Source: Haloferula helveola
Lineage (GTDB): Bacteria; Verrucomicrobiota; Verrucomicrobiia; Verrucomicrobiales; Akkermansiaceae
Reading direction: 5' to 3'
Length of the DNA: 64,000 nt
NCBI RefSeq assembly: GCF_037076345.1
Contig: NZ_AP024702.1
Location: 1,860,001 to 1,924,000, forward strand
How positions within the stretch are numbered: position 1 is the first letter of the stretch; each line of letters opens with the position of its first letter. Shown here piece after piece: positions 25,067 to 59,275 of the stretch. The notes under the pieces are model-generated. The model saw only the letters and a list, made by a program, of their open reading frames with translations, was not told where the DNA came from and ran no database searches. The position numbers and the translations under genes are program-made.

Positions 25067-28000
25067 CTAATCTGACGAGGTTCGGCTGAATTGAATCCAA
25101 ACCCCCGGCGGATCGCTTTTGGGATCAAGCTCGCTCACCTCCAGAACTTTCACTCGGTCGCCCTCCTGAAGCCTCCCAATTGGCGTGCCTTGATCCCACT
25201 TTCCATTCTCGCCGAGCGATACGCTATCGCGGATATTCATCGTTGCCTCAGCTATGACTATCATCCCTCGTTCCGGAATCGCCGTGCGCTCACCCGATTC
25301 GGGACGGAACGACTGGGCCCGCAGCATTGGCGCCTCGACATCGGGGTCCAACCAACCATAAAGCGACCAACCAACAGGCTCTGAATCAAGCCCGATTTCC
25401 TGGTCCCCAGTTAGGTCCCATAGCTGCACCCCACCATCAAAGCTTGCAGTCGCAATACGGTCCCCCGAAGTATCGAAGGCTATAGCGGTAATCCGTCTGG
25501 AGTGTCCGCGCAGGACATACTTGGCTTGGTCTTCCCCGTCGTACCAGATCCTCGCCGTCGCATCCGAACTACCTGAAAGCAACTTCGTTCCGTCCGGGCT
25601 GTAAGCAATGTGCCGAACTTCTCCCTGATGCCCAGTGAGACGTCTCTCCATTTTCCCGGTGGCGCTATCCCAGACGCGGATAGTCTGGTCACCACTCGCT
25701 GTCGCAATCTTGCCCTCCCTCGGATGAAAAGCGACTTGAAAAACCCTGCCCTCATGCCCTTTGAGACTATACACCTTAGCTCCCGTTTCGACATTCCATA
25801 CAGCTATCGTGCCATCATCGGCACCAGCAGTGGCAGCGAGCAATCCGTCGGGACTGAAAACGCCGCTCGGAACGGATCCTCCAGTGCTCAACTCAATGGG
25901 AATACCATCACTTTCGGGAGTCCATATGATGGATCTATTTCCGGATGTGGAGGCAATAACCCGCCTCCCGAAGGGATCGAATGATGCTGAAGTGACCATC
26001 GCATCAAGCGATGCGGTCCGCCACTGCTTCAGATTACCCGCATCCCAAATCTGGACAGTCTGATCATTGCTGGCCGATAGAATGCGAGAACCATTGGGGT
26101 GATAGCATACACTGGTAATCGCATCTTTGTGCCCTTCATACGCTCGGGTCGTCTCGGCGACCAGATCGCGAACTCTAACCGTCGAGCCGCTGCTGCCCGC
26201 CACGAGCTGATTTGGCTCAGCTAGAGGACTGAACGCGATGCAATTCACCCCATTGCTGCTACTGCCTTGGAACTCGGTCAACTGCTCTCCTTCCGCAGAC
26301 CAGATTCGTACCCAGTTGTCCAGTCCAGCGCTCGCAAGGCGACCATCCTTTGAGAATGCAATAGCCGTAATTGCGTCATTGCTTGCAGCAAGTGATTTAA
26401 CCAGAGTCGGCGCTTTCGGATCGGCTACCACATCCTCTGGAGCCCGAGAAGTCTGGGCGATCAGATCACTGCTTGTTTTGGCGAGCGTTTCAACCTGCTT
26501 AGTCCCGTTGTTGGCAAGATCCTTGGTCGCGATCACTCGCTCCTCAGAGTCTCTCAATTTCCTTTCCTGGTCGGCGGTTAGCGTCGATTCTGAGTCCCTC
26601 AGCACATCCTGGATGTCGCTGAGCACTTTAGCTTGATCCGCTGCAATCGCTTCAAAGTTTGCCCGCGCGCGGTTGGCTTCATCGAGCTGCTCCGTGAGCT
26701 TGGCGCTCACTTGCTCACTCTCTTGCAGCTTACTCTCGAGTTCCTCGGCGGTCGCTGCCAGCTCGTCCACTTTCCTCTCGGTTTCAGCTCGAGCGTTCCG
26801 TTCCGACTCCGCGGCGGCCTCGGCAGCGGCCTTCGCAATCTCGGCGTCCTCTCTTGCCTCAATCGCTTCGCTTGCCTCAAAGTTTGCTCGCTTGGTCTCT
26901 TTGTTTGCTCGATGAGCGTTACTAAGAGCCCACCCAGCTAGTCCTAGCGCAACCACCGCCGCGAAACCTAGGATCCGATTCTGGACTTTTCGTGCCTTCT
27001 CCCGGTCAGCAGCACGCTCGTCGCCTTGCTGTTGCATCAGCTCTTTAACCCGCTGGTCGTGCACTCGCTTGCTCGAAAGAGCCGAAAGCTGTTCGACCCG
27101 CCACCGATAGACATCAGCAGCCAGCGAATCGTGAGCGACCTCAAATCGACCATCATCAGGATCACGCTGGTCGTCGAATGGAAGCTGGGTGATCAACCGC
27201 ACCTCTGTGAAGCGACTCAGTAGTTCAACCATCTCAGCGGTCGAAGGAGGCTCGATGTTGTCTTGGGTCAGAGGCTCCTCGATCTCCCTCACAAGCTCCG
27301 ATGCGATCCACGGGAACTTCTGGCTACGCGACACCAAGAAGCGGCAAGCCTCGATAAGCCAGCGTTGCTCATTTGACGAGCCGACGCGATCGGCCAAGCT
27401 CTTGTCGACGAATGTGGAACGAACGCCTTGCGAGTTGCCAAGAGTCGTGAAGGTGTCTTCTGTCAGAAGGGCACCCGCGGGATCACAAATCCAATCAGGA
27501 TCTCCATGCAACGCGTCGACAATCCAGATTTGTTCAAGACTCAATTGGAGAAATGGTGTCTCGTAGCGAGAATCGACACCGGCCCTAACGAGTTGACGAA
27601 CTTTCAGCCCTGCATCACCAACAATCGCATCCACAAGTCCAGGCTCCGCCTCGAATTTACCCTGATGGTCTTCCGTCCACCGCCTCAAGGATTCGCCGAT
27701 AACCTTGCGGACTCCCGCCTCATCAAGAAACTGGATGCGCAGAGTCGAATCAAACAGACCCGGAATCAGTCCCTTGAAGCAGTCCAATCGCGACAGGAAG
27801 TCCTCCCGCAAACTCAAAACGACATTGACCGGTGTTCCCGGATCATTCAACAGCGCGATGAGGCATGCGGCGGTCTTGATCCCGGAGGCGGCTTCCTCCG
27901 GAAGATCATCAAATGAAGGTTCCGGCTCTCGCATGCGCGAGGCCAGATCGAGCAATTTGGCAGGCGTAAGCTGCGCAATCTGCGGAAACCGAATGAACAA

Positions 28001-28456
28001 GTCCTCGAACTGATCTAAGACCAGAACCAGTGATTGGGCGGAAGCCAGAGACAAGTTCCGCCCTTTCTTCGAATCCTCTGCATGGCAAGCGGGAAACCAG
28101 TGACGCGGGAACTTCAGCCCCTCGGACGATGGGAGTGCCTCCACCCGCATGCACAGCGACCGCCAAGGGTCGGTCGCCCATTCGTCCCGGAGTAACAGAA
28201 CCGCTGGCGGCGGGGTACCACAGAAGCTCGCATCGGCATCATCGATTCTGTCGCCATGCCTTTCCAATTCGGGGATCAGACCCGCGCACAATACCGACGA
28301 CTTACCGCAGCCCGATGGCCCATAGACGATCGTGTGTCGTCGGACCCGCGCGTTTGCCACAGCAAGCCTCACTTCACGATCTCGACCGCAGAAGTAACGT
28401 CGCGACTCCCTCGTGTATGGAGCTAGGCCTACAAATGGTGAAGCCAATGGTTTCAC
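25067..28456 (-). CDS. Membrane-anchored STAND NTPase with WD40 repeats (defence candidate)
   Basis: 1129 residues from the GTG at 28456, 5 nt after the stop of the SIR2-like gene. The opening SPFVGLAPYTRESRRYFCGRDRE is the nSTAND1-type signature. Walker A GPSGCGKS is at 46-53 and Walker B LVLVLDQFED near 143-152. A helical winged-helix-like region ends around residue 480. One transmembrane helix (ILGFAAVVALGLAGWAL, ~490-512) leads into a coiled coil rich in Ala and Glu, then about eight WD40 blades (VRIW, VQIWD, IRVWD, VQLWD endings) and an SH3-like tail. STAND proteins with sensor repeats switch on an effector, here probably the SIR2 partner. The WD40 propeller and the helix suggest sensing at the membrane. 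Confidence 0.88.
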   Translation of the reverse strand: MKPLASPFVGLAPYTRESRRYFCGRDREVRLAVANARVRRHTIVYGPSGCGKSSVLCAGLIPELERHGDRIDDADASFCGTPPPAVLLLRDEWATDPWRSLCMRVEALPSSEGLKFPRHWFPACHAEDSKKGRNLSLASAQSLVLVLDQFEDLFIRFPQIAQLTPAKLLDLASRMREPEPSFDDLPEEAASGIKTAACLIALLNDPGTPVNVVLSLREDFLSRLDCFKGLIPGLFDSTLRIQFLDEAGVRKVIGESLRRWTEDHQGKFEAEPGLVDAIVGDAGLKVRQLVRAGVDSRYETPFLQLSLEQIWIVDALHGDPDWICDPAGALLTEDTFTTLGNSQGVRSTFVDKSLADRVGSSNEQRWLIEACRFLVSRSQKFPWIASELVREIEEPLTQDNIEPPSTAEMVELLSRFTEVRLITQLPFDDQRDPDDGRFEVAHDSLAADVYRWRVEQLSALSSKRVHDQRVKELMQQQGDERAADREKARKVQNRILGFAAVVALGLAGWALSNAHRANKETKRANFEASEAIEAREDAEIAKAAAEAAAESERNARAETERKVDELAATAEELESKLQESEQVSAKLTEQLDEANRARANFEAIAADQAKVLSDIQDVLRDSESTLTADQERKLRDSEERVIATKDLANNGTKQVETLAKTSSDLIAQTSRAPEDVVADPKAPTLVKSLAASNDAITAIAFSKDGRLASAGLDNWVRIWSAEGEQLTEFQGSSSNGVNCIAFSPLAEPNQLVAGSSGSTVRVRDLVAETTRAYEGHKDAITSVCYHPNGSRILSASNDQTVQIWDAGNLKQWRTASLDAMVTSASFDPFGRRVIASTSGNRSIIWTPESDGIPIELSTGGSVPSGVFSPDGLLAATAGADDGTIAVWNVETGAKVYSLKGHEGRVFQVAFHPREGKIATASGDQTIRVWDSATGKMERRLTGHQGEVRHIAYSPDGTKLLSGSSDATARIWYDGEDQAKYVLRGHSRRITAIAFDTSGDRIATASFDGGVQLWDLTGDQEIGLDSEPVGWSLYGWLDPDVEAPMLRAQSFRPESGERTAIPERGMIVIAEATMNIRDSVSLGENGKWDQGTPIGRLQEGDRVKVLEVSELDPKSDPPGVWIQFSRTSSD

Positions 28457-28461
28457 GTCGA

Positions 28462-29610
28462 TCAGAGATACTGGTTCAGTTGTTTGGCATACTCGGCGCC
28501 ATCCTGATTGAACAAATCAATCGTTGCAGAACCGTCCGAAGCAGATTCCCACCGATCAATATCTGCTTGCGAAGGGTCTTTCTGAATTGCCCAGTTGTAT
28601 AGGTTCGGAACGCCTCGCCGGGCCCAGAGATTCTGGCAAATCGCCAGTATGTTCCAGTCACCGAGTCCGTACCCGACAAATAGGAAGTGCACCTCCTTTA
28701 ACCTATCCTCAAGCGTGGTGGGAAACGGTGTCTTCGTCGAGACAGTCCTCAGAAACTGGATGTAATCATTTTGACTGATGACAAAACTCGACGACTCGAA
28801 GCCATCCGGTGATACGGTCCCGTGTATTTTTACTACCAGAGTCCGGGCTTTGTCTTCGGGTTCGATCGAAGGGTAGCCGCGTTGCTGATCCGAGCCGATG
28901 GGGAGCCCATCGTACTCAGCTAGTGCGGTAATAGGAGTCTCATCGCGCATGACTCCAGCAGGCGTTTTCAATCTTCGGGCCTCATAATACTCGTGGGCGT
29001 TTCTCCAGTGATACAACCACACCGGGTTGGCAACTGTTGGTGCCCGATAGTAAACCACGTCGAAAGGTTCTCCAGCCGCTGCCAACGCGGACTCCATAAC
29101 CGTGTCGTAGTTCGTCGTGATGAAGATCGATCCACGGTTGCGCTCTGACTTCGAGGGCAACTTTGCAAGCACGTCGTGCACCAAGGTCGGCGCATAGTCG
29201 CGCTCAAAAATTCGCTGGAGCTCTAACGGGAGATTGAGCTTGCCTCTCGCACTGGTCTGGATGTGTTGACATACCTGAGCGAGGTCCGCTTCCAGCACAC
29301 CTCGGACCGACTTGACAAAGTCATGGCGGATCGGGCACGAGTTTCCAGCACCCGCCGCTACGCCATTCTGGGGAATGGGGACGCCCGCGCACTCCGGAAC
29401 CTCCAGCTGAGAAGGGAATCCTGACGCTTGAGCAAGGTAGTGGGATAATTCTCTCCCCGTAGGCAGGTATTCAGCTTCAGGGCGCCAGGATCTTCCTGCG
29501 GGTTGCTGCGCGTAGTTCACTCCGGCACCGAGGAATACTGCAATACGACCTCTTTTGGCTGCATCTGCCACAACCTCAAAATGGGGGGGGGTAGGTGCCT
29601 CGGCTTTCAT
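28462..29610 (-). CDS. SIR2-like NAD-binding effector (defence candidate)
   Basis: 382 residues starting at ATG 29610. SIR2_2-type features: FLGAGVN at 26-32 (NAD-binding loop), TTNYDTVMESAL near 164 (Asn/Asp of the active site), VKIHGTV near 257 (catalytic His) and LFVGYGLGDWN near 308. These match SIR2 domains of antiphage proteins that destroy NAD+, rather than protein deacylases; no zinc-binding Cys set is visible. It is followed after 5 nt by the STAND-WD40 gene, so the pair is probably one operon with sensor and effector on separate chains. Upstream is a long gene-poor stretch. Confidence 0.88.
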   Translation of the reverse strand: MKAEAPTPPHFEVVADAAKRGRIAVFLGAGVNYAQQPAGRSWRPEAEYLPTGRELSHYLAQASGFPSQLEVPECAGVPIPQNGVAAGAGNSCPIRHDFVKSVRGVLEADLAQVCQHIQTSARGKLNLPLELQRIFERDYAPTLVHDVLAKLPSKSERNRGSIFITTNYDTVMESALAAAGEPFDVVYYRAPTVANPVWLYHWRNAHEYYEARRLKTPAGVMRDETPITALAEYDGLPIGSDQQRGYPSIEPEDKARTLVVKIHGTVSPDGFESSSFVISQNDYIQFLRTVSTKTPFPTTLEDRLKEVHFLFVGYGLGDWNILAICQNLWARRGVPNLYNWAIQKDPSQADIDRWESASDGSATIDLFNQDGAEYAKQLNQYL

Positions 29611-37336: not shown

Positions 37337-39280
37337 TCAGTCCTCACATCCAATCGAATAGACGTAAATACCGCCGATGTCATCGGGCGCATCGGGCCCG
37401 ATCTTCTTTTTCTCGAATACAAATCCAGCCTCAGCCAGTAACTCCTCGTACTCTTCACAAGACAGCTTGAAGTCGCCAACCTCACGCAGCCCAGAGTCAA
37501 GTGCCGCCTCCTCGAGTTTGACGAGCTCTTGGTGACCATGCCGCCTCGCCTCCTCAATGACGAAGGTGTGGAAATCAACAAGCGCTTCACGCCGATCTTC
37601 AGCGCTCGTTTTATCGTATGAGCGAAGAAACTCATCCCCTACAATATATCTCCCTCCTCGCTTGAGGTTTCGTCTGACATTTCGAAAGTAATCTTCTTTG
37701 TCGTATGGCTTGACATGATGGTCAGCGAATGCTGAAAAAATGTACTCAAATTCTCCATCTGGATCGTATCGTCGGCTATCCTCGTTCACAGCACGCGCCT
37801 TGATGTTGCGCAACTCCCCTTCGGTACATGTGGTGTCGATGATATGTCCCAATAGATTATAACACGCCCAATCCAACTCAACTGCAGTCAAATCCAAATT
37901 CTCCCTTCGAAGAATACGCTTCGTAAAAAGCCCAGTCCCCGCACCAAACTCCAGCACCCGAATTTGCTTCTCCTTATCATCTCGGCGTTTCTCAAACTGG
38001 GAAATCATCTCGTCCACCATCTCGAGGTAGAAAACGTGCTTCTCCTCGTGCTGATGATAATGATGTATGTCGATGTATGCGGACATCTCAACCTGTTTGC
38101 GCAACGACCTGACCTTCATTTCAGGCTGCCGGAAGGTAGCCTCGACCAAGCCGGCGTCATCCGGGTTTCCAGACACTGACACGGCCGCCTTTATGATCCC
38201 GCCAAGAGCGTCTTCGTGGGCAGAAATCTCATCTTTCTCCGTGTGAAATGTGATCACTCTCGAAACATGTTCGTTTCCGCTGTCCTCGTATTTGGCAAGC
38301 ACTCTGGCAGCAATATCTCCAATTACCGAAAAGTCGTAGTTGAAATCCGGAAATCCCTTCGTGAGGTTCTCAAAAGAGATCGAGTAGACATTATACTGCT
38401 TTGCATGGTCACGAAGAATATGAACGTTTTCTTCCATCTGCGAAGGCGACTGAAAAACAAACACCCGCGTACTGTTCTTATCGGTACTGTTTCGAATAGT
38501 CTGCCCAATTCTCCCCTTCCAGAACCTCTCCTCTACGTCAATAACCGCCAAAGCTTTGACTGTCGCCTTGTCCCTTTTCAAGAGGTTGATTAGATAACGG
38601 GGGTAAGCGTCATATGACAAGGATATCGACCCCGATCTAGCGCGCAGATCTCCGATCGTACAGACTTGCTCACGGATCGACTCAATAACAATTCCCCGAA
38701 AATACTTGTTCCCTTCCATTTCGGAATGCCGACTCAAGCCCGACACGCCGTTCTCAAACTCGGCGCTTACGGCTTCCAGGTCCACCTTCCATGCCGACCC
38801 TTCCCTTGACATCCCTTCAGAGATTTTCTCGCTCAGCCTTTCCCACCACACTGATATCTGCTCCGACAACCAGTTCTCATCTTGGGGATCTTTACGAAGG
38901 CTATTGATCTTCTTAACGATTTGCGTGACTCCTTCCTCGCTGAATTCCACAGACTGAAACTGGGAGAGCGGTCCATCAAGATCAGCCCTCCCCATGTCGA
39001 ATAGCAGCGGGCACACGACTGCCTGAGATGATATCTTTGAGATTGCACCTGCTTCAAAAAGGAGCCACGGAGACGATGCGTTCTCTGGTGTGACGCAGAA
39101 GATTCCCATATTGATTTCACCGAGACTGTCGGCGATGGCATTTGCCCATCTAGTGCCGGGTTCGACGTCCTCCTCAGAGAGCCATGGGGTGATATTCTGA
39201 AGAACCCGCGGCAACCACTCGTGCAGGGCATTTGCAATGACACGACTCCGTTGCCCAGACCAACTGATAAATATTTTCAT
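37337..39280 (-). CDS. TIR domain - SAM-dependent methyltransferase fusion
   Basis: 647 residues from ATG 39280 (MKIFISWSG); ATG 39298 is an alternative with GGAG at better spacing. Residues 2-150 are a bacterial TIR domain: KIFISWSGQRSRVIANALHEWL, TPWLSEEDVEPGTRWANAI and SPWLLFEAGAI, whose Glu 76 sits where TIR NADases have the catalytic Glu. A ~200-residue middle part without a clear family follows (IREQVCTIGDLRARSG...DKNSTRVFVFQSPSQM). From about 430 a class I methyltransferase begins, with motif I VLEFGAGTGLFTKRIL, the acidic LTAVELDW and a late RYIVGDEF. Codon and base use is clearly AT-richer than its neighbours, which suggests recent transfer. Probably immune- or signal-related. Confidence 0.85.
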   Translation of the reverse strand: MKIFISWSGQRSRVIANALHEWLPRVLQNITPWLSEEDVEPGTRWANAIADSLGEINMGIFCVTPENASSPWLLFEAGAISKISSQAVVCPLLFDMGRADLDGPLSQFQSVEFSEEGVTQIVKKINSLRKDPQDENWLSEQISVWWERLSEKISEGMSREGSAWKVDLEAVSAEFENGVSGLSRHSEMEGNKYFRGIVIESIREQVCTIGDLRARSGSISLSYDAYPRYLINLLKRDKATVKALAVIDVEERFWKGRIGQTIRNSTDKNSTRVFVFQSPSQMEENVHILRDHAKQYNVYSISFENLTKGFPDFNYDFSVIGDIAARVLAKYEDSGNEHVSRVITFHTEKDEISAHEDALGGIIKAAVSVSGNPDDAGLVEATFRQPEMKVRSLRKQVEMSAYIDIHHYHQHEEKHVFYLEMVDEMISQFEKRRDDKEKQIRVLEFGAGTGLFTKRILRRENLDLTAVELDWACYNLLGHIIDTTCTEGELRNIKARAVNEDSRRYDPDGEFEYIFSAFADHHVKPYDKEDYFRNVRRNLKRGGRYIVGDEFLRSYDKTSAEDRREALVDFHTFVIEEARRHGHQELVKLEEAALDSGLREVGDFKLSCEEYEELLAEAGFVFEKKKIGPDAPDDIGGIYVYSIGCED

Positions 39281-39332
39281 TGAATTAGATTCATACATTC
39301 CTAAGTGGCTCCTCTTCGCACGCTCTGAAATC

Positions 39333-50825: not shown

Positions 50826-52196
50826 ATGTCACAGCTCACTTCATTTTCGGACATTGACGGCGTGCCTTTTCACTACGCCCGACCTCCCGTTGCCCCGTAC
50901 GGATCAAGAGGCAAGCCCCATGTCTTCCGGTGCGATGCCCGTCTCCTCCCTGCTCTAACGGACGCTGTTCGTGAACTCTCTGAAGTATGCCCCCTCGGAA
51001 AGCCGCAACTAATCACCTCGGCAGGCACCTTCGTGAATAAGCCCGGCCAGCATGGCAAGGGCCTCGCGGTGGATATCGACGCTATTTTTTGGCCCGAAAG
51101 GGAATTCGTCACGAAAGAGTTCCCAATGGATCCAACCTTTTATCTGTCGATAGAGTGCATCTTTCGCAGGTATTTCGGACTCGGTTTGAATTATCTCTAC
51201 AATTCCGCCCACCACGACCACTACCATCTCGATTTGGGGCGCCCTGTGGACTTCGTAACGAGTTCCCGCTCGTATACCCTGTTCCTCCAGGGCGTCCTGA
51301 CCCATATTCACGGGCACGAGGTTGTGATCGACGGGCAATGGGGGCCTCAGACCGAACAGGCAACCGAACAGACGCTCAAGGATCTGGGCTCCACCGGCAA
51401 GATCACCACCCCCGCCACCTGGAAGCGCTTTCTGCTGGAAAGTGCCAAGATCGGGTTCGGAACCTCCAGTTCCCCCGGGAATTCCGCCGCCCACCAAATC
51501 GAAGTACTAAGCTCCGTCGTCGAACATCTTGGGATCGACGGTGATGACTGGCAGATGCTGAGGGGGAGTCTCGACGCTCTTCTTGACACACCTGAGGTCA
51601 CCCGGCTGCTGGAAGACGATTCCACTGAAGAGACAGTCCGTCTGGGGATCTGCAAGAAGATCGTCGACTTCGAGGCACGCCGCAACAACAAGGGCAAGAT
51701 CATCGTTTACAAGCTGCCTTCCGGGGACGGTGGCGGCACCTACGAGATCGCCGGCATTAACGAGAAGTATCATCCGGAGATGGCTGCGAAGTTGAAGCGG
51801 ATGATCGAGACCCAGAAGAACCCAGACCGGGCGGAGGCGCTGGCGGTCATTTACATCGCGACCTACACCGACGCGGCGGCCCGCTGGTCTGTTAACTACG
51901 GAGTCGAGTCCTACCTGCGGGATTCGATGTGGAACCGAGGGCCGGGTGGCGCCGCCAAGATCCTCCAACTGGCCTTGGGGTTCAAGAAGAGCGACGTCGA
52001 CGGCCTGGTCGGGCCGCAGACCCTGGGCGCTCTTGCCACGGCCGAAGCGAAGCCTGTCGCCTTTCTCGCCGAACTTCGGGCTGCACGGGAACGGTATGAA
52101 CGCGAGTATGTGAAACGAGACGAAACCAGCAAGTTCTGGAAAGGTCTGGTCAACCGCTGGGACAAGGCGCTCGCGTTCTCGCGGAGCCTTGCCTGA
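50826..52196 (+). CDS. Muralytic enzyme: M15-type peptidase, PG-binding, GH108-like domains
   Basis: 456 residues without a signal peptide. Residues ~30-140 are an M15/extensin-like peptidase with H76-x6-D83 (GQHGKGLAVDID) and H132-x-H134 (HHDHYHLDLG), the zinc ligands of D,D- or L,D-peptidases. Residues ~145-190 (HEVVIDGQWGPQTEQATEQTL) are a peptidoglycan-binding helix bundle. From ~270 the sequence fits GH108/TtsA lysozymes: IVDFEARR...DGGGTYEIAGINEKYHP, then WNRGPGGAAKILQLALG...VDGLVGPQTLGAL and KFWKGLVNRWDKAL, the PG_binding_3 part. Lack of a leader is endolysin-like: it would need a transport route or membrane damage to reach the wall. It is the first gene of the cassette operon. Confidence 0.8.
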   Translation: MSQLTSFSDIDGVPFHYARPPVAPYGSRGKPHVFRCDARLLPALTDAVRELSEVCPLGKPQLITSAGTFVNKPGQHGKGLAVDIDAIFWPEREFVTKEFPMDPTFYLSIECIFRRYFGLGLNYLYNSAHHDHYHLDLGRPVDFVTSSRSYTLFLQGVLTHIHGHEVVIDGQWGPQTEQATEQTLKDLGSTGKITTPATWKRFLLESAKIGFGTSSSPGNSAAHQIEVLSSVVEHLGIDGDDWQMLRGSLDALLDTPEVTRLLEDDSTEETVRLGICKKIVDFEARRNNKGKIIVYKLPSGDGGGTYEIAGINEKYHPEMAAKLKRMIETQKNPDRAEALAVIYIATYTDAAARWSVNYGVESYLRDSMWNRGPGGAAKILQLALGFKKSDVDGLVGPQTLGALATAEAKPVAFLAELRAARERYEREYVKRDETSKFWKGLVNRWDKALAFSRSLA

Positions 52197-52283
52197 GGGC
52201 TGCCTGAACTTACGCCTTCCGCCGCGGGCCCGATGCGCCTGCGCCCCTTCGAGACCTCGTTCCCTCCCGAAGTAACAACCATC

Positions 52284-55094
52284 ATGAGTTTCAGCCTGAC
52301 CCTTGCCTCCGCACTCGCCCTTGCAAACGGCATCATCCGCATCGGGCGGGAGATCGACCTCATCGCCGCCGCCAAGGTCGCCCGGGAGGACGCGCTCTCC
52401 CTCCCGATTCCGACAGCGACCAACGTCACGCCGGCGAACGTGCAGGAGTTCCTCGATTTCCTCGTTGAAGACGAGGACCTTCACGACCTCGGAACGAAAC
52501 AGGATCGCGAAGACATCCGCGAGCTCGTGAAAGCGGAGAACGGGTTCTCGGGCGAGGAACTCGTTACGGCCTACAAACGCCACTACGCTGTCTTCGCACT
52601 GATGCTTCGGCATCGGTGGCAAGCCCGCCTCGATGATCCCGGGGACGCGAGAGCGATCGTCGTCGGCAACCTGACTTCGGAGGACCAGGGCTACATCGAC
52701 TGGGTGCGCAAGCATCATCCGGCATGGATCAATGAGCCCGAGAGCATGCGAGCCGTTTTCCGCCTCAGCGCAACCGGCGGCGACTCCGTCGACAGGAACA
52801 AGGAAACGGTCTGGAGACTGACGAAGCTTCTGCTCGATCTCCTCGCGGATTTCGGGGCCAGCAATGCCGGACTGATTACCAAAGACGCGAAGCTTCAGGT
52901 GATTGTGGAGAAGGTTTTGGTCAGTTTCGGAGATGCCAATGTACACGAAGGCAATCTGAGCGCCAAAGACGTGCTCCGGGTTGGATTCAGCTCCACTCTC
53001 TCCGGAGTGCTGGATGCACGGGACGCGCTGGACCTCGACAATGCCTGGCTTGAAGAATTTCTGGGTGCGGTTGCATCACTCAGGGACGAGCTGGACGGCG
53101 ACGAAGGGATCGGCTTCGACACTTTCGTCCTGAGCCTCTTCCAAGGCAAAGGCTATCCCCGTCTGGTGGCCGTGCTTCTCGAGACGGCAGCCGGACAAGC
53201 CGGAGGGGGTGCCGGCGCAGGGCACCGTGCTGAGATCAAGAGGCTCAGTGCCACTTATCTGAAGCAAGTGGCCGGTCTGCTGAAGTCGTGCGAGGACCAG
53301 GGCCAAGGCGCGCTCAGGGATTTCGTCCGCCACCGTTGGGGCGATCTGCTCCGGGGCGCGTTCTCGAGCATCAACACGCATGCGGACGAACTACTCGGCG
53401 GGGCAGGCTCCTCACTGGCGAGCCGAGTGCTCCAAAGCGTGCTGCACCAACTTTCATCAAGTCCTGACTCGGCTTTCCTTCGCAGTGGTTCCTCGGATCT
53501 GGTCGCTTCGCTCGCGGACGCGGCGGTGACCGCCGTGGTGGAGAACAAAGGCCTCATAGAAGCAAAGATCGACGAGCCGTGGTTCAGGGAGTTGGTCGGG
53601 CACGCGGCGACCGTCTTGGGCAACCAAGGGCTTCAAAAGACGCTGACCGCGGATGGTCTCGCGTCACTGACCCGGGAGGTGATCCACACGACAGCACGCG
53701 CGGCTGCTCTCAACCCCTCGCTATTGGACGGCGCCGTCGGCGAAAGCTGGCTCCGCCAGATCGCTCCGGCCATCGTCGTCGCGATCACCGATCCCGGTTT
53801 GCAGAGCACACTGGACGCGGACGGTTTGAAGCGTGTCGCAATCGCGGTGGCCGACGCCGCAGCCTCCGTGTTTGCCAATGATCCGTCGCTCATACAGGAC
53901 GGGATCTCGGAAACTTGGCTCAGTGCGGTGGTCCAAGGCGCAGTCGGTGGCCTTGGAACCAGCGGGGTGGCTGTCCTGCTCGACAAGGAAGGGGCGACCG
54001 CGTGGATCGAGGGAGTGCTCCGCAGTGGCGCCACGGCTTTGTCGGAGGATCCTTCAATGGCCGGCACCATCGACGAGTCATGGCTGCGCCTGCTCGTGCA
54101 GGCAGTCGGCGAGGCAGTGGTTGCCACACCGTCAGGCACCCGCCTCGGATCCGACAACCTGCGGGAGATAGGGGTCCACTACTTCGAAGTGGTCCTCGGT
54201 CACTTCGCCACCAATTCCGCCGAGGTAACCGCGGGCATCGGAGACGGACGGGTCCGGGCAGCCCTTGAGGCATTGCTTGCAGCCGCCTCTTCGGATGACG
54301 TCGTGAATCACTTCACTGCCGAAGGGTTGCGGAGCCTGATCGGTCTGACGATCAGCGAGTTGGCGGATCGCCCGGAGTTCTTCCTCGAGGAAGACGTCCA
54401 TCGGGGCGTCGCCGAGCTTGTAGGTAGAGTGACGAAAGCCGTCGGAGACAGCATACAGTCCAAGATCAGCGCAGAAGCACTCGCAAGCGTAGTACTCAGA
54501 AGCGCGCTGCAGGCGGTAGCTGCCGACCCTTCGATCATCGATCCCGACTATTCGAGAACCATCGCCGCCGTTGCGACCTGTGTCGCAGGCGCGCTGGATG
54601 GAACGCCGTTCTCGGAAGTGACCGTCCGGGCCGTCGCCGAAGCCGCGGCGCTCGACCTCCTCGAAAACCAATCGCTGCTGACTTCGGGGAACGGAAGCGT
54701 GGCGGTCGCCTTGCTCAAGTCGACCATCGATGCCATCCGCGAGACCACCGCCGGGGAGGCCGAACCCGCGCGAATCGCGCGCCGGATCATCGCTCCGATT
54801 CTGCCCGAACTCACGAGCGCGGTAGTCCGGGCAGTCGCCGCCAAGGGGCAGCAGCTCCTGTCGGGTCTCGATCAGGATGCGGCCCGGTCACTCATCGCCC
54901 AATCACTGGGGCCTTTGATCTCAGCGACGTTGTCCGGGATCCTCCGCCGGATTGGAGATGGTTTCTCCTCATCCGACCTTCCGGTGGTTCTGGAAACGGT
55001 CGCGGGCGAGTGGGCCTCCGGCGCCGTCTTCCCGGCGGATGCGCAGGCACTTGTCGCCAAAATCGAAGAACGTCTCGAAATCCTCGCAGCATGA
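52284..55094 (+). CDS. Large tandem helical-repeat protein, unknown function
   Basis: 936 residues from ATG 52284; ATG 52233 (17 codons earlier) is possible. Residues ~1-370 are helical without known motifs. From about 400 to 800 there are some eight repeats of 50-58 residues with the pattern DPSLI-x-x-x-I-x-E-x-WL ... L-x-x-L-x-A-D-GL-x-x-x-x-x-V-x-x-A-x-x-A-L-A-x, for example NPSLLDGAVGESWLRQIAP followed by LDADGLKRVAIAVADAA. Later units are more degenerate. It has no signal peptide, no transmembrane helix and almost no cysteine. Such solenoid repeats usually bind protein or form filaments. It sits 87 bp after the muralytic gene and 22 bp before the lipoprotein gene. Confidence 0.75.
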   Translation: MSFSLTLASALALANGIIRIGREIDLIAAAKVAREDALSLPIPTATNVTPANVQEFLDFLVEDEDLHDLGTKQDREDIRELVKAENGFSGEELVTAYKRHYAVFALMLRHRWQARLDDPGDARAIVVGNLTSEDQGYIDWVRKHHPAWINEPESMRAVFRLSATGGDSVDRNKETVWRLTKLLLDLLADFGASNAGLITKDAKLQVIVEKVLVSFGDANVHEGNLSAKDVLRVGFSSTLSGVLDARDALDLDNAWLEEFLGAVASLRDELDGDEGIGFDTFVLSLFQGKGYPRLVAVLLETAAGQAGGGAGAGHRAEIKRLSATYLKQVAGLLKSCEDQGQGALRDFVRHRWGDLLRGAFSSINTHADELLGGAGSSLASRVLQSVLHQLSSSPDSAFLRSGSSDLVASLADAAVTAVVENKGLIEAKIDEPWFRELVGHAATVLGNQGLQKTLTADGLASLTREVIHTTARAAALNPSLLDGAVGESWLRQIAPAIVVAITDPGLQSTLDADGLKRVAIAVADAAASVFANDPSLIQDGISETWLSAVVQGAVGGLGTSGVAVLLDKEGATAWIEGVLRSGATALSEDPSMAGTIDESWLRLLVQAVGEAVVATPSGTRLGSDNLREIGVHYFEVVLGHFATNSAEVTAGIGDGRVRAALEALLAAASSDDVVNHFTAEGLRSLIGLTISELADRPEFFLEEDVHRGVAELVGRVTKAVGDSIQSKISAEALASVVLRSALQAVAADPSIIDPDYSRTIAAVATCVAGALDGTPFSEVTVRAVAEAAALDLLENQSLLTSGNGSVAVALLKSTIDAIRETTAGEAEPARIARRIIAPILPELTSAVVRAVAAKGQQLLSGLDQDAARSLIAQSLGPLISATLSGILRRIGDGFSSSDLPVVLETVAGEWASGAVFPADAQALVAKIEERLEILAA

Positions 55095-55116
55095 GAGGGC
55101 AATCCATCAGCCGACC

Positions 55117-55977
55117 ATGAAACGAATCCTTTCCACACGTCATCTCCTCGGGATTGTGGCGACCGCCGCCCTGGCCGTCCAGGGGTGTGCCACGCAAACC
55201 GACGTCAAACGCATTGTAGCCGAAGCGAACGCGGCAAACATTGCCTCGGTCGAAACGCTAACCGGCCAGCCCTACTTCCCGGTCGCTGGCAAGGCGGAGG
55301 GCGATAAAACCGCGGCATCGATCGCTGGAAGGCAGGAAGATGCCGAGTTCCGCTTGAGGCGGATGATCGCCTCACAACCCGACCCCGCTATCAGCGGCCC
55401 CCTGCAGTTCCGGCTCGCAATCCTCCATACGGTCCGAAAGGAGCCGATCAGTGCCCGCGCCGCTTGGAACTCCGTCCCGCTCGGAACCCTCGACAGTCGG
55501 GACCGCATTCTCTACCGGTCAAGGGAGCCGCTCGTGCTCTGGTATCAGGCATGTGACAAACCCACGGCGCTGAAAGCGGCTTCCGACTCGATCATTGGCA
55601 GTCCGCCGATCGCTCCGTCCGAATCCGGTTTCGATTCGACCTACCTCGGCATGCTCGACGCAGGAGTCGGCGACGCGATCCGCGACAGGAATTCGGGGCT
55701 CGCATTCTATCTCTCCACGATCTTCGCGGACATGACGGTGCAACTCTTTGAGTCCGATCGACACCCGCAAGCCGATGCGCGCTGGGTCGAAACCTTCCAA
55801 CGGGCCAACTCCAGGATGCTACAAGTCCACCGGATGCCCGAAACCCGCAACCTACAACCCGGCACACCTGAAGCGGAATACCGGCGATTCCACATGGACC
55901 GGGTCGGCCGACGCCTTTTGGGAAACAAGCACCGCTTGGGAATCGATATCGGCTGGACCGACTCCGACAAATTGTGA
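55117..55977 (+). CDS. Lipoprotein of unknown function
   Basis: 286 residues from ATG 55117, chosen over 54952 because it starts a lipoprotein signal, MKRILSTRHLLGIVATAALAVQGC, with a lipobox-like sequence ending in Cys 24; the upstream frame overlaps the helical-repeat gene. The mature part is helical (AEFRLRRMIASQPDPAISGPLQFRLAILHTVRKEPISARAAW), suggestive of TPR-like packing, but no family is recognised. It lies between the solenoid protein and a membrane protein in the cassette operon and is probably an envelope component of the same system. Confidence 0.72.
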   Translation: MKRILSTRHLLGIVATAALAVQGCATQTDVKRIVAEANAANIASVETLTGQPYFPVAGKAEGDKTAASIAGRQEDAEFRLRRMIASQPDPAISGPLQFRLAILHTVRKEPISARAAWNSVPLGTLDSRDRILYRSREPLVLWYQACDKPTALKAASDSIIGSPPIAPSESGFDSTYLGMLDAGVGDAIRDRNSGLAFYLSTIFADMTVQLFESDRHPQADARWVETFQRANSRMLQVHRMPETRNLQPGTPEAEYRRFHMDRVGRRLLGNKHRLGIDIGWTDSDKL

Positions 55978-56067
55978 TCGTGGCACACACCGAAAGAATC
56001 GGTCCAAGCGACTCCAGGCGGCTCCAAATCCGCACCGACGCATCAATCCCTCCAACCTACCCCGACC

Positions 56068-56949
56068 ATGCCCAAGACACCGAAACCCCCTCCCCCCGAT
56101 CCCTCTCCTGAACCCCGCGACGAGAGCCGCTTCTGGAAAGGGACCGACCCGCTCCTGATCACGGGGTGGATGGTCATGTTCTATCTGTTCTTCGTCGGAC
56201 TCGTTTCCGCGATTCTCGTGACGATCAATTTCCCGGGCCCTGCGGTCACAGACGGAGAGGACGCCAAAGTACTCAACAAGAGCTTTCACTTCCTCGTCCA
56301 CAAGGCGCCCTTGCAATCCAACGGAACGCTGTTCCTTTTCCTCGCGTTCTTTTCCGGTGTTGCCGGGAGCTTCATTCACGCAGCCCAGTCGCTGGCCAGC
56401 TATCTGGGGAACGAGTCCTTCAAGCGATCCTGGATTCCCTGGTATCTGCTCCGGCCGTGGATCGGTGGAGCACTCGGCTTCGCGGTGTTCGTCGTGTTCA
56501 GTGCCGGACTGGTCGGTGCCAGCGCGATGTCGGATGGCGCGATCAACCACTATGGCATCATCGCGCTCGGTTTTCTGGGCGGCTGGTTCTCCAAGACAAC
56601 CAGCGACAAGCTGCAGGAGGTTTTCGAGACGCTCTTCAAGACCAACGCCGATGCGCAGAGGAATGACAAGTTGGACAACGTGCAGCCCGAGATCGAGAGT
56701 TGCGATCCCTTGCCGGTGCCGAAGAACGCCACGAAATTGCGGATCAAGGGCCGGGGTTTTCAGGAAGGAGCCAAGGCGATCATCGACGGCAAGGAACTGA
56801 CGATCAGCTTCTTTTCCGATGACAAGTTGACGATCGAACTGAGCAACCTCGACCGACCCGCCAGCCCGAAAACCCTACATCTTCACATCGAGAACCCGAA
56901 GGGCTCGGAACGACTCTCAAAGCCGTTCAAGATTCCCTTCGAGGCGTAG
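56068..56949 (+). CDS. Four-helix membrane protein with C-terminal TIG-like domain
   Basis: 293 residues. A proline-rich start (MPKTPKPPPPDPSPEPRDES) precedes TM1 (LLITGWMVMFYLFFVGLVSAILV, ~29-51), a soluble loop, TM2 (LFLFLAFFSGVAGSFIHAA, ~87-106), TM3 (WIGGALGFAVFVVFSAGLVGA, ~131-151) and TM4 (HYGIIALGFLGGWFS). The C-terminal ~85 residues (VPKNATKLRIKGRGFQEGAKAIIDGKELTISFFSDDKLTIELSNLD) have the strand pattern of an IPT/TIG beta domain. It is probably an inner-membrane partner in the cassette, perhaps a channel or an anchor; no known effector family is recognised. Confidence 0.72.
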   Translation: MPKTPKPPPPDPSPEPRDESRFWKGTDPLLITGWMVMFYLFFVGLVSAILVTINFPGPAVTDGEDAKVLNKSFHFLVHKAPLQSNGTLFLFLAFFSGVAGSFIHAAQSLASYLGNESFKRSWIPWYLLRPWIGGALGFAVFVVFSAGLVGASAMSDGAINHYGIIALGFLGGWFSKTTSDKLQEVFETLFKTNADAQRNDKLDNVQPEIESCDPLPVPKNATKLRIKGRGFQEGAKAIIDGKELTISFFSDDKLTIELSNLDRPASPKTLHLHIENPKGSERLSKPFKIPFEA

Positions 56950-57001: not shown

Positions 57002-59275
57002 ATGAGACGACGTACCCCCGTCCGCATCTATGTGCTCTGGCACAAAAGTTTCGCGGAGGGACTCCCTTTGGCGAGGCACATCTATCACTGGTTCCGGTTG
57101 CCAAGTGGGGAAGGAATTCCCGTCTACTTCAGGTGCGCGGAGAATCCGTTCGGTGAGAGTTTCCCTGAAATCCGGGAGGAGGACTGCGACCACAACATCA
57201 TTATCCCGCTGGTAGAGCCCAACATGGTGGCCTCCATGCCTTGGCGAAGGAAGATCGAGAAGCTGGCCAACACCGCCAGCGACTCGGAGGCGGGGGACTG
57301 GCAGGGAGCCCGCTGCCACCTCCTCCCGATCGCCCTGCATGACACCGCCTATCAAATGCCGTCAGCGGTCCGGCGCCTGAACTTCATCCGCAAGGTGGGG
57401 CCCTCAGGAAACGCACCGGACGAGGTGCTGATGAGCCGCTTGACCGAGGCGCTTTGCCTCCTGCTACGGGGGATCGCCAGCCCGGGCGTCACTGATCCGA
57501 TCAAGATATTCCTCAGTCACGCCAAAGCCGACGGCACGGATGTCCCGAAAGAGATCAAGAGCTTCATCCAGAACGAAACCCAGGCGCATACCTTCTTCGA
57601 CGAGAACGATATCGCGTATGGCCATGACTTCGCCAAGGTCATCGAGAAAGCTCTCCAGACCGAGTCAGCCGGCCTTCTGGTCGTGCAGGGCGACCATTAC
57701 GCCGACCGCCCGTGGTGCCGGAAGGAGATCCGGGACTTTCTGGAGCCGAGGAGGATTTCGGAATCAGGAGAAGAAGCAGGCCGTCCCGCATTGTTCTCCG
57801 TGATGCCCTCGGTCGTGGTGAGCAATTTCGAAGGCAACAAGGTCGCGCGGACGATACCGGAGCTCGGTCATGCGCCATCGGTGCAGTGGAAACCGCAGGC
57901 CGCCCGGTCCGCCGTCGTGACCCTGTTACGGGAGATCCTCTTTTCCAATTTCTACCGCCTTCTGGCGCGCCGGGAGCGGTCCGGTTTCCCGGACAGCGAC
58001 GGTCCACGCAGGCTCCTCGTCAACCGTCCGCCCGATCCGGTAATGGTCGAGCAACTCCTGCAGTTGGCCAAGGTGGATCGCAACCACCCGAAGGGAGTGA
58101 CCATCCATCATCCCGGTCACGGGCTCACGAGCGTCGAGCTTGAGGGACTGCAGGCGCTGTATGGAAACTTCGGTTTCCATGCCTTCGGCGCACGAATCGA
58201 GGAACCGGCATCCGTCGGCGGCGGTAACGATTCCGGGAAGGCCGGAGTCTTCGCAGGCAGGGTCCTCGCGATCTCGGCAGGCAATGCCTGCGATATCCTG
58301 AAGTCCGGGTTCAGCGACGACCACACCGTGGAGCTGCTGACCGCCATCCTGCATCCACTCTTCAAGAAAGACATATCCCTGCTCTACGGAGGAGGGCTCC
58401 CGAAGTGGGATGACCCCGATAAGCCGTGGATCTCGAAGGTGAACTATACCCACACTTTCCTCGGTCTGTTGCTCGCGGAACGCGACAAGACCGATGGAAA
58501 TCCATCCGGTGAACCAGGACTGAAGGCAGACACCCTTCCTTCCCGACTCTTCAATCTCAGTGCTTGGCCGCACTCCCTCGATTTCACCATCGAAGACGAG
58601 GCGCGCTGGGTGAACACATGCTCGTTTCTTTGCGTTACCCAAGGAATGGCAGGCATTCCGGCCGACGAAATTCTGGGGCCGGAGCACGTCGAGGAGGAAC
58701 ATCGGCGACAGAAGATCCTGAACACCGCGGTTTGTCTCACCGCGATGCGCCGCAGGCGCTGCGGTGATTTCACCTGTGACACCCCCGAACGGGAGAACTT
58801 CGAGTTCCAGCCGATTGCTCACCTCTTTGTCGGAGGCAAGCTCCGCAGGTATTCGGGAATGATTCCCGGTGTTTGGGAGGAGATGCTCCATGCCTACCTG
58901 GCGGAGCGCCCCTGCTTTGTCGTTCGAGCCACCCGCGGCGCGGCCGGGCGTCTTGGGGAGTGGTTGCTCAATCCACCCGTCGACCGCCCCGTCGAGCTCA
59001 GCGTCGCCTATCAGGCGCGCCAGTCTGGGGATCCGGAAGTCTACCGCTGGCTCGCTGACCAATTGGACGATGCCTCTGACCGCCTTGGTCCCACGCAGGC
59101 TTTTGACCAGCTGTGGCAATTGATTCAGGCGCGCCACGACTCCTCCTTGTCTGAGGTCCTTCGAAACAAACTCAGCGACGAAGAGAATGAGGATCTACTC
59201 AGATCCGGTGACTTTGGCGAGATCGCCAGATTGATTGGCAAAGGCTTGGAAAGGCTGGCCGAGCCCGGAAGATAA
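57002..59275 (+). CDS. TIR-TIR-SLOG-like signalling protein
   Basis: 757 residues. Residues ~7-105 are a TIR-like fold lacking the catalytic Glu pattern (RIYVLWHKSFAEGLPLARHIYHWF ... CDHNIIIPLVEPNM). Residues ~165-290 are a full TIR: PIKIFLSHAKADG, TFFDENDIAYGHDFAKVIEKAL, LLVVQGDHYADRPWCRKEIRDF, with Glu near 241 where TIR NADases carry the catalytic Glu. From ~330 the sequence is Rossmann-like with SLOG features: ISLLYGGGLPKWDD (~460) and IAHLFVGGKLRRYSGMIPGVWEEMLHAYLAERPCFVVRATRGAAGRL (~605-650), like the G-x-x-PG-x-x-EE and GG-FGGaa motifs of nucleotide-sensing SLOG domains. This suggests NAD-derived signal production and sensing in one chain. Confidence 0.8.
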   Translation: MRRRTPVRIYVLWHKSFAEGLPLARHIYHWFRLPSGEGIPVYFRCAENPFGESFPEIREEDCDHNIIIPLVEPNMVASMPWRRKIEKLANTASDSEAGDWQGARCHLLPIALHDTAYQMPSAVRRLNFIRKVGPSGNAPDEVLMSRLTEALCLLLRGIASPGVTDPIKIFLSHAKADGTDVPKEIKSFIQNETQAHTFFDENDIAYGHDFAKVIEKALQTESAGLLVVQGDHYADRPWCRKEIRDFLEPRRISESGEEAGRPALFSVMPSVVVSNFEGNKVARTIPELGHAPSVQWKPQAARSAVVTLLREILFSNFYRLLARRERSGFPDSDGPRRLLVNRPPDPVMVEQLLQLAKVDRNHPKGVTIHHPGHGLTSVELEGLQALYGNFGFHAFGARIEEPASVGGGNDSGKAGVFAGRVLAISAGNACDILKSGFSDDHTVELLTAILHPLFKKDISLLYGGGLPKWDDPDKPWISKVNYTHTFLGLLLAERDKTDGNPSGEPGLKADTLPSRLFNLSAWPHSLDFTIEDEARWVNTCSFLCVTQGMAGIPADEILGPEHVEEEHRRQKILNTAVCLTAMRRRRCGDFTCDTPERENFEFQPIAHLFVGGKLRRYSGMIPGVWEEMLHAYLAERPCFVVRATRGAAGRLGEWLLNPPVDRPVELSVAYQARQSGDPEVYRWLADQLDDASDRLGPTQAFDQLWQLIQARHDSSLSEVLRNKLSDEENEDLLRSGDFGEIARLIGKGLERLAEPGR

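What the first reader, a model, noticed from the sequence alone, without database searches (positions are those of the whole stretch)
37337..39280. TIR domain fused to a class I methyltransferase, with foreign base composition
Seen: TIR with SPWLLFEAGA at the N-terminus, a ~200-residue unassigned middle part, and VLEFGAGTGLF methyltransferase motif I. The gene is markedly AT-richer than its flanks and lies in a pocket with long empty flanks (229 and 759 bp). Pairing a TIR with a small-molecule-type methyltransferase is unusual; it could modify the TIR-made nucleotide signal.
Basis: partly seen in the sequence, partly recalled or inferred. Interest (0 to 1): 0.7.

Follow-up and report, generated by a model that had tools for sequence, protein, structure and literature searches.

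The report
TIR, dead PLD and methyltransferase fusion
One bacterial protein joins an NAD-cutting immune-type domain, a burnt-out phospholipase-D-like domain and a small-molecule-type methyltransferase; rare relatives in other phyla usually sit beside a membrane-protein gene, which suggests an undescribed TIR-based alarm system whose alarm molecule might be methylated.

Summary
Window 37337-39280 (-) is one intact 647-aa frame: TIR (1-~155, catalytic-type Glu76), a ~200-aa middle, and a class I methyltransferase (MT, ~391-647). GC is 49.8% against 62.0% for the window. The gene is missing from 17 congeners and about 145 family genomes, so it was probably acquired. The fusion is not an artefact: the same three-part protein exists in a Methylococcaceae, a Nitrospinota and several cyanobacteria (33-52% identity). 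Two cyanobacteria carry the MT as a separate downstream gene. Folded alone, the middle is a phospholipase-D-superfamily domain whose HxKx4D motif is gone, as in the sugar sensor TrmB. The MT is closest in fold to the carboxyl O-methyltransferases CysG/BelI and shares their His-His pair. In 6 of 8 three-part loci an 8xMP (PF24838) membrane-protein gene lies alongside or within a few kb, usually the only 8xMP in that genome. Four of seven plasmid 8xMP genes inspected abut a short ThsB-like TIR gene. Best reading: the TIR arm of a TIR/8xMP alarm system, extended by a ligand-binding domain and an MT. This genome has no 8xMP, so its copy is an orphan or has another partner. That the MT modifies the TIR product remains an untested guess.

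The parts
37337..39280 (-). TIR - degenerate PLD - methyltransferase gene, 647 aa (or 653 aa from the ATG at 39298)
   Evidence: single open frame; same architecture in relatives
38816..39280 (-). TIR domain, aa 1-~155; Glu76 in SPWLLFEAGA
   Evidence: Pfam TIR_2 E 1.6e-10; PADLOC TIR-TM model, TIR part only, E 3e-54; Glu kept in all seven aligned three-part members
38126..38725 (-). middle domain, aa ~186-385: PLD-superfamily fold without HxKx4D
   Evidence: AlphaFold model pLDDT 78, pTM 0.75; PLD-superfamily matches SauUSI Z 12.7, TrmBL2 Z 11.4, Nuc Z 10.6; no conserved HKD motif in 14 relatives
37340..38110 (-). class I SAM methyltransferase, aa ~391-647
   Evidence: Methyltransf_25 E 2.1e-9; CysG/BelI fold matches Z ~20.8; 43-51% identity to relatives
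37925..37954 (-). MT motif I, LEFGAGTGLF (aa 443-452)
   Evidence: E-x-G-x-G-T-G invariant in seven MTs
37715..37720 (-). His521-His522 of SAFADHHV, aligned with the His-His of CysG/BelI
   Evidence: alignment; HHD metal site described in PMC11408123
39309..39314 (-). possible ribosome-binding site GAGGAG, 10 nt before the in-frame ATG at 39298
   Evidence: sequence

Best explanation
The gene encodes the TIR arm of a TIR/8xMP type alarm (conflict) system in an elaborated form. The degenerate PLD domain most likely binds a trigger or holds the assembly together (inferred; TrmB is a precedent for a PLD-like fold that became a ligand sensor). On activation the TIR cleaves NAD+ (inferred from the intact Glu76 and known TIR chemistry). 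The fused MT then uses SAM to methylate a small molecule, most likely the TIR product or something derived from it (inferred, least certain step). In most relatives the output would act through the neighbouring 8xMP membrane protein, damaging the membrane or stopping growth (inferred). Shown by computation: the three-domain architecture, its recurrence across phyla, retention of both active-site signatures in the three-part members, the PLD fold without HKD, and the link to 8xMP. In this genome no 8xMP exists, so the protein must act alone through NAD+ loss, use another effector, or be an orphan.
For: TIR and MT domains above Pfam cut-offs. Same architecture in Methylococcaceae (L031), Nitrospinota (L032) and cyanobacteria (G522, G632, G1368, G1425; G1440 interrupted); MT as a separate downstream gene in G564 and G516. 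TIR Glu, MT motif I and His-His all kept in the seven aligned three-part members. Middle domain PLD fold, no conserved HxKx4D. 8xMP gene near the fusion in 6 of 8 three-part loci: next to it in four (G632, G515, G1368, G1425), with an AstE/AspA-type gene or further ORFs between in G522 and G1440. In five of those six genomes it is the only 8xMP; of the eight other family genomes, the window's included, seven have none. Independent support: four of seven plasmid 8xMP loci have a short ThsB-like TIR gene directly upstream, overlapping by 1-4 bp or separated by 1 bp. Precedent for TIR with a 2TM SLATT gene: PMC7159879; one plasmid 8xMP weakly matches SLATT.
Against: No 8xMP in the window's genome nor in the Methylococcaceae genome. 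The MT substrate is unknown, and the fold match to CysG/BelI does not fix it. TIR NADase activity is predicted, not shown. HTH- and GAF-bearing paralogues have mostly lost the TIR Glu, so the TIR-PLD core can serve non-catalytic regulation. Pfam and fold similarity cannot show immunity. The 8xMP linkage in cyanobacteria may count related lineages more than once.
Confidence: 0.45

Rival explanations
1. The MT domain is a sensor rather than a signal-modifying enzyme: it reads SAM or a methyl-acceptor level (for example loss of SAM during infection) and gates the TIR.
For: In paralogues the C-terminal slot is filled by tandem GAF domains, a ligand-sensing module; in G1478 the MT has lost motif I (GAKTG) and one His.
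Against: In the three-part members and the separate MT genes motif I, His-His and the C-terminal GDFK.S...IGP...GG motifs are conserved, as expected for an enzyme. The GAF forms carry an HTH and have lost the TIR Glu, so they may not be functionally comparable.
Confidence: 0.2
2. A self-contained NAD+-depleting suicide protein: the degenerate PLD domain senses a trigger and the TIR depletes NAD+; the MT modifies the protein itself or a host molecule and no signal is made.
For: The window genome and the Methylococcaceae genome have the full fusion without 8xMP.
Against: Most three-part relatives have 8xMP near, often as the only copy in the genome.
Confidence: 0.2
3. A regulator of metabolism or stress, not immunity.
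For: HTH-TIR-like-PLD-GAF-GAF paralogues in cyanobacteria look like signalling proteins.
Against: Patchy distribution, foreign base composition, TIR Glu kept, link to 8xMP, and other NAD/nucleotide conflict genes in the same window.
Confidence: 0.1
4. Frameshift or assembly artefact joining two genes.
For: Two cyanobacteria have the MT as a separate gene.
Against: Independent full-length fusions with alignable junctions in several phyla.
Confidence: 0.01

Closest known systems
Thoeris (ThsB TIR with ThsA)
   Same: TIR expected to make an NAD-derived product for a separate effector; 8xMP genes on plasmids abut ThsB-like TIR genes
   Different: P0001 hits no ThsB model at E <= 1; extra PLD and MT domains; effector candidate is 8xMP; no ThsA beside it
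TIR plus SLATT 2TM conflict systems (GAP1-N1 systems of PMC7159879)
   Same: nucleotide/NAD enzyme with a small membrane protein predicted to be a signal-responsive pore
   Different: 8xMP rather than SLATT; no GTPase module; PLD and MT fused to the TIR
TIR-TM (PADLOC model)
   Same: closest TIR sequence family, E 3e-54
   Different: match stops at residue 158; the remaining part of that model does not match
TrmB/TrmBL2 PLD-like domains
   Same: PLD fold in a regulator rather than a nuclease; TrmBL2 Z 11.4
   Different: very low sequence identity; different partner domains; ligand unknown
CysG/BelI metal-dependent carboxyl O-methyltransferases
   Same: fold Z ~20.8, His-His pair aligned
   Different: 18% identity; the third ligand Asp and the substrate-binding Arg are not established here; CmoA-type folds score within 1 Z

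Membership tests
TIR domain (Pfam TIR_2) | profile match above cut-off | tested here: met
   42 bits against cut-off 28
TIR domain (Pfam TIR_2) | catalytic Glu of NADase TIRs | tested here: met
   Glu76 in FEAG, kept in the seven aligned three-part members
TIR domain (Pfam TIR_2) | NAD+ cleavage | not testable with these tools
   needs enzyme assay
Class I SAM methyltransferase | profile match and motif I | tested here: met
   Methyltransf_25 38.4 bits against 27; GAGTG; fold
CysG/BelI O-methyltransferases | His-His-Asp metal site | tested here: inconclusive
   His-His aligned; Asp beyond the aligned stretch; Asp603 is a guess
CysG/BelI O-methyltransferases | methylation of a malate-type carboxylate | not testable with these tools
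   substrate unknown
Phospholipase D superfamily | PLD fold | tested here: met
   list dominated by PLD-superfamily folds, best Z 12.7
Phospholipase D superfamily | HxKx4D catalytic motif | tested here: not met
   absent from the window protein; no conserved copy in 14 relatives
Thoeris | ThsB-type TIR | tested here: not met
   no ThsB model among PADLOC hits at E <= 1
Thoeris | ThsA beside the TIR gene | tested here: not met
   flanking genes are a 303-aa unknown, a beta-lactamase-family and an APH-family gene; the SIR2_2 gene 8 kb away pairs with nSTAND1-WD40
TIR-TM (PADLOC model) | TIR followed by the second half of the model | tested here: not met
   only the TIR part matches, 1-159 of 293
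TIR/8xMP systems as proposed here | 8xMP gene beside or near the TIR gene | tested here: not met
   met in 6 of 8 three-part loci, not in the window's own genome

The most novel reading that the evidence does not exclude
A TIR-PLD-MT protein makes a methylated NAD-derived second messenger from NAD+ and SAM, and an 8xMP membrane protein is its receptor and effector.
Probability: 0.22. Interest if true: 0.88.

Novelty: new variant of a known kind. Interest (0 to 1): 0.62.

Why it matters
TIR enzymes of bacteria make diverse NAD-derived immune signals. A TIR physically fused to a methyltransferase, and linked in relatives to one membrane protein, is a directly testable candidate for a methylated signal and for the role of the 8xMP family. 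It also shows a dead PLD domain recruited into a TIR protein.

Tried and rejected
Exact-peptide scans of viral and genome contigs with the single sequence found no relative. Trial alignments whose extra rows I had altered artificially were used only to loosen search patterns; one (A2) yielded the three true relatives, each confirmed by tblastn with the real sequence. Five scans of viral contigs found nothing, the last with a real alignment. Plasmid and phage tblastn hit TIR or generic MT only. The PADLOC mad2 hit was followed and dropped: that model rings in every genome tried, controls included. A single-protein search of 387 phylum genomes gave only weak MT-region hits. No Rfam match, no tRNA and no obvious mobile-element repeats at the locus. 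No paper on TIR-MT fusion or 8xMP with TIR was found in the held library, which is not proof of novelty. Whether relatives keep the two flanking genes together without this gene was not resolved: the downstream neighbour is itself nearly absent from the genus.

Full report
CHECK. The frame 37337-39280 (-) is intact, 647 aa. TIR_2 and Methyltransf_25 pass their Pfam cut-offs; the middle matches nothing by sequence. GC is 49.8% against 62.0% for the window, and only about 0.2% of equal-length windows are as AT-rich, the lowest being in this pocket. The middle domain is absent from 17 congeners and the rest of 145 family genomes searched, and a single-sequence search of 387 phylum genomes gave only weak hits confined to the MT region. 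Horizontal acquisition is inferred.

RELATIVES. A genome-collection scan gave three true relatives, confirmed by tblastn with the real sequence at 44-52% in the MT. L031 (Methylococcaceae) has TIR-middle-MT of 643 aa; L032 (Nitrospinota) has the same in 635 aa with a divergent TIR; L033 (Nostocales) has HTH-TIR-like-middle followed by a separate MT frame. Profile searches in cyanobacteria added G522, G632, G1368, G1425, G1440 (interrupted by a stop), G1478 (HTH-TIR-middle-MT, 712 aa), G564 (MT as an overlapping downstream gene) and HTH-TIR-like-middle-GAF-GAF proteins (G820, G1387, G1467, G516). Searches of 321 genomes of the Methylococcaceae member's class and 77 of the Nitrospinota member's phylum added no further full member among the listed matches.

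MIDDLE. AlphaFold on the middle alone gives pLDDT 78.2 and pTM 0.75. Foldseek and VIA-align return a list dominated by PLD-superfamily proteins: SauUSI Z 12.7, rmsd 3.0 over 151; TrmBL2 Z 11.4; Nuc Z 10.6; TrmB Z 9.1. The HxKx4D motif is absent, and the strand where it would be expected reads DFSVI or similar (the equivalence is inferred from topology). Positions such as Y226, E251, F253, W254, R272, H292, Y296 and Y331 are invariant in 14 members. A ligand-binding or scaffolding role is inferred.

METHYLTRANSFERASE. The best solved matches are CysG and BelI, Z 20.8, 2.7 A over 210 residues, 18% identity, with CmoA and MM_2633 within 1 Z. By profile the His-His pair of CysG aligns with His521-His522. 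In CysG/BelI this pair with an Asp binds Ca2+ in the active site (PMC11408123). The substrate of our MT is not determined.

PARTNER. An 8xMP gene lies near the fusion in 6 of 8 three-part loci. Three were tested with Pfam directly (PF24838 above cut-off), all six by a profile built here and by PF24838 over whole genomes. It is the nearest gene in G632, G515 (divergent), G1368 and G1425. An AstE/AspA-type gene lies between in G522, and further ORFs including a similar one lie between in G1440. Five of those six genomes have no other 8xMP; G1425 has a second, and G820 (a GAF-type member) has unlinked ones. The window genome has none. On plasmids, four of seven 8xMP genes inspected have a short TIR gene directly upstream (overlap of 1-4 bp, or a 1-bp gap), and these TIRs match ThsB models.

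MECHANISM. Shown: architecture, recurrence, retained TIR Glu, MT motif I and His-His in the seven aligned three-part members, PLD fold without HKD, 8xMP link. Inferred: NAD+ cleavage, trigger sensing by the PLD-like domain, methylation of the TIR product or a related small molecule, 8xMP as membrane effector. The sensor reading of the MT is the strongest rival because GAF domains fill the same slot in paralogues.

NOVELTY. Each domain is known; the combination and its 8xMP link were not found in the held literature. I class it as a new variant of TIR-based conflict systems, not a member of Thoeris or of the PADLOC TIR-TM family.

Noticed in passing
window 25067-29610 (-): SIR2_2 gene followed by an nSTAND1-WD40 gene, GC about 0.55 against 0.62 for the window: a second likely NAD-related conflict pair 8 kb from the TIR-MT gene.
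   Followed up: partly
window 57002-59275 (+): 757-aa protein with TIR (169-248) and SLOG cluster 2 (LD_cluster2) domains: a third NAD/nucleotide-type conflict gene in the window.
   Followed up: partly
window 50826-56949 (+): Genes just upstream of the TIR-SLOG gene, one with a PG_binding_3 domain and two without Pfam match; GC 0.58 at 50826-52196 and 56068-56949.
   Followed up: no
L110, L111, L112, L114: Short ThsB-like TIR gene directly upstream of an 8xMP gene on plasmids of Polaromonas, Novosphingobium, Synechococcus and Paenarthrobacter: a candidate two-gene TIR/8xMP system.
   Followed up: partly
L103-L106: HTH-TIR-like-PLD-like-GAF-GAF proteins in cyanobacteria with the TIR Glu lost: regulators built on the same core.
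   Followed up: partly
L084 10877-11737, L100 4446-5171: AstE/AspA-type gene (Pfam match in L084 only; L100 similar by eye) between 8xMP and the fusion in two cyanobacteria.
   Followed up: partly
L033 7785-7960: GGACTTACGCA ... TGTGTAAGTCC inverted ends between the PLD-like and MT frames, resembling a small mobile element.
   Followed up: no
L085 5034-7037 (-): Three tandem short vWA-type genes near the G632 fusion; one tested matches VWA_2 and vWA-TerF-like.
   Followed up: partly
PADLOC model PDLC04134 (mad2): Model matches all 57 genomes searched and all 14 controls, so its hits are unspecific.
   Followed up: yes
L100 5243-7216: The G1440 copy of the fusion is split by an in-frame TAA.
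   Followed up: no
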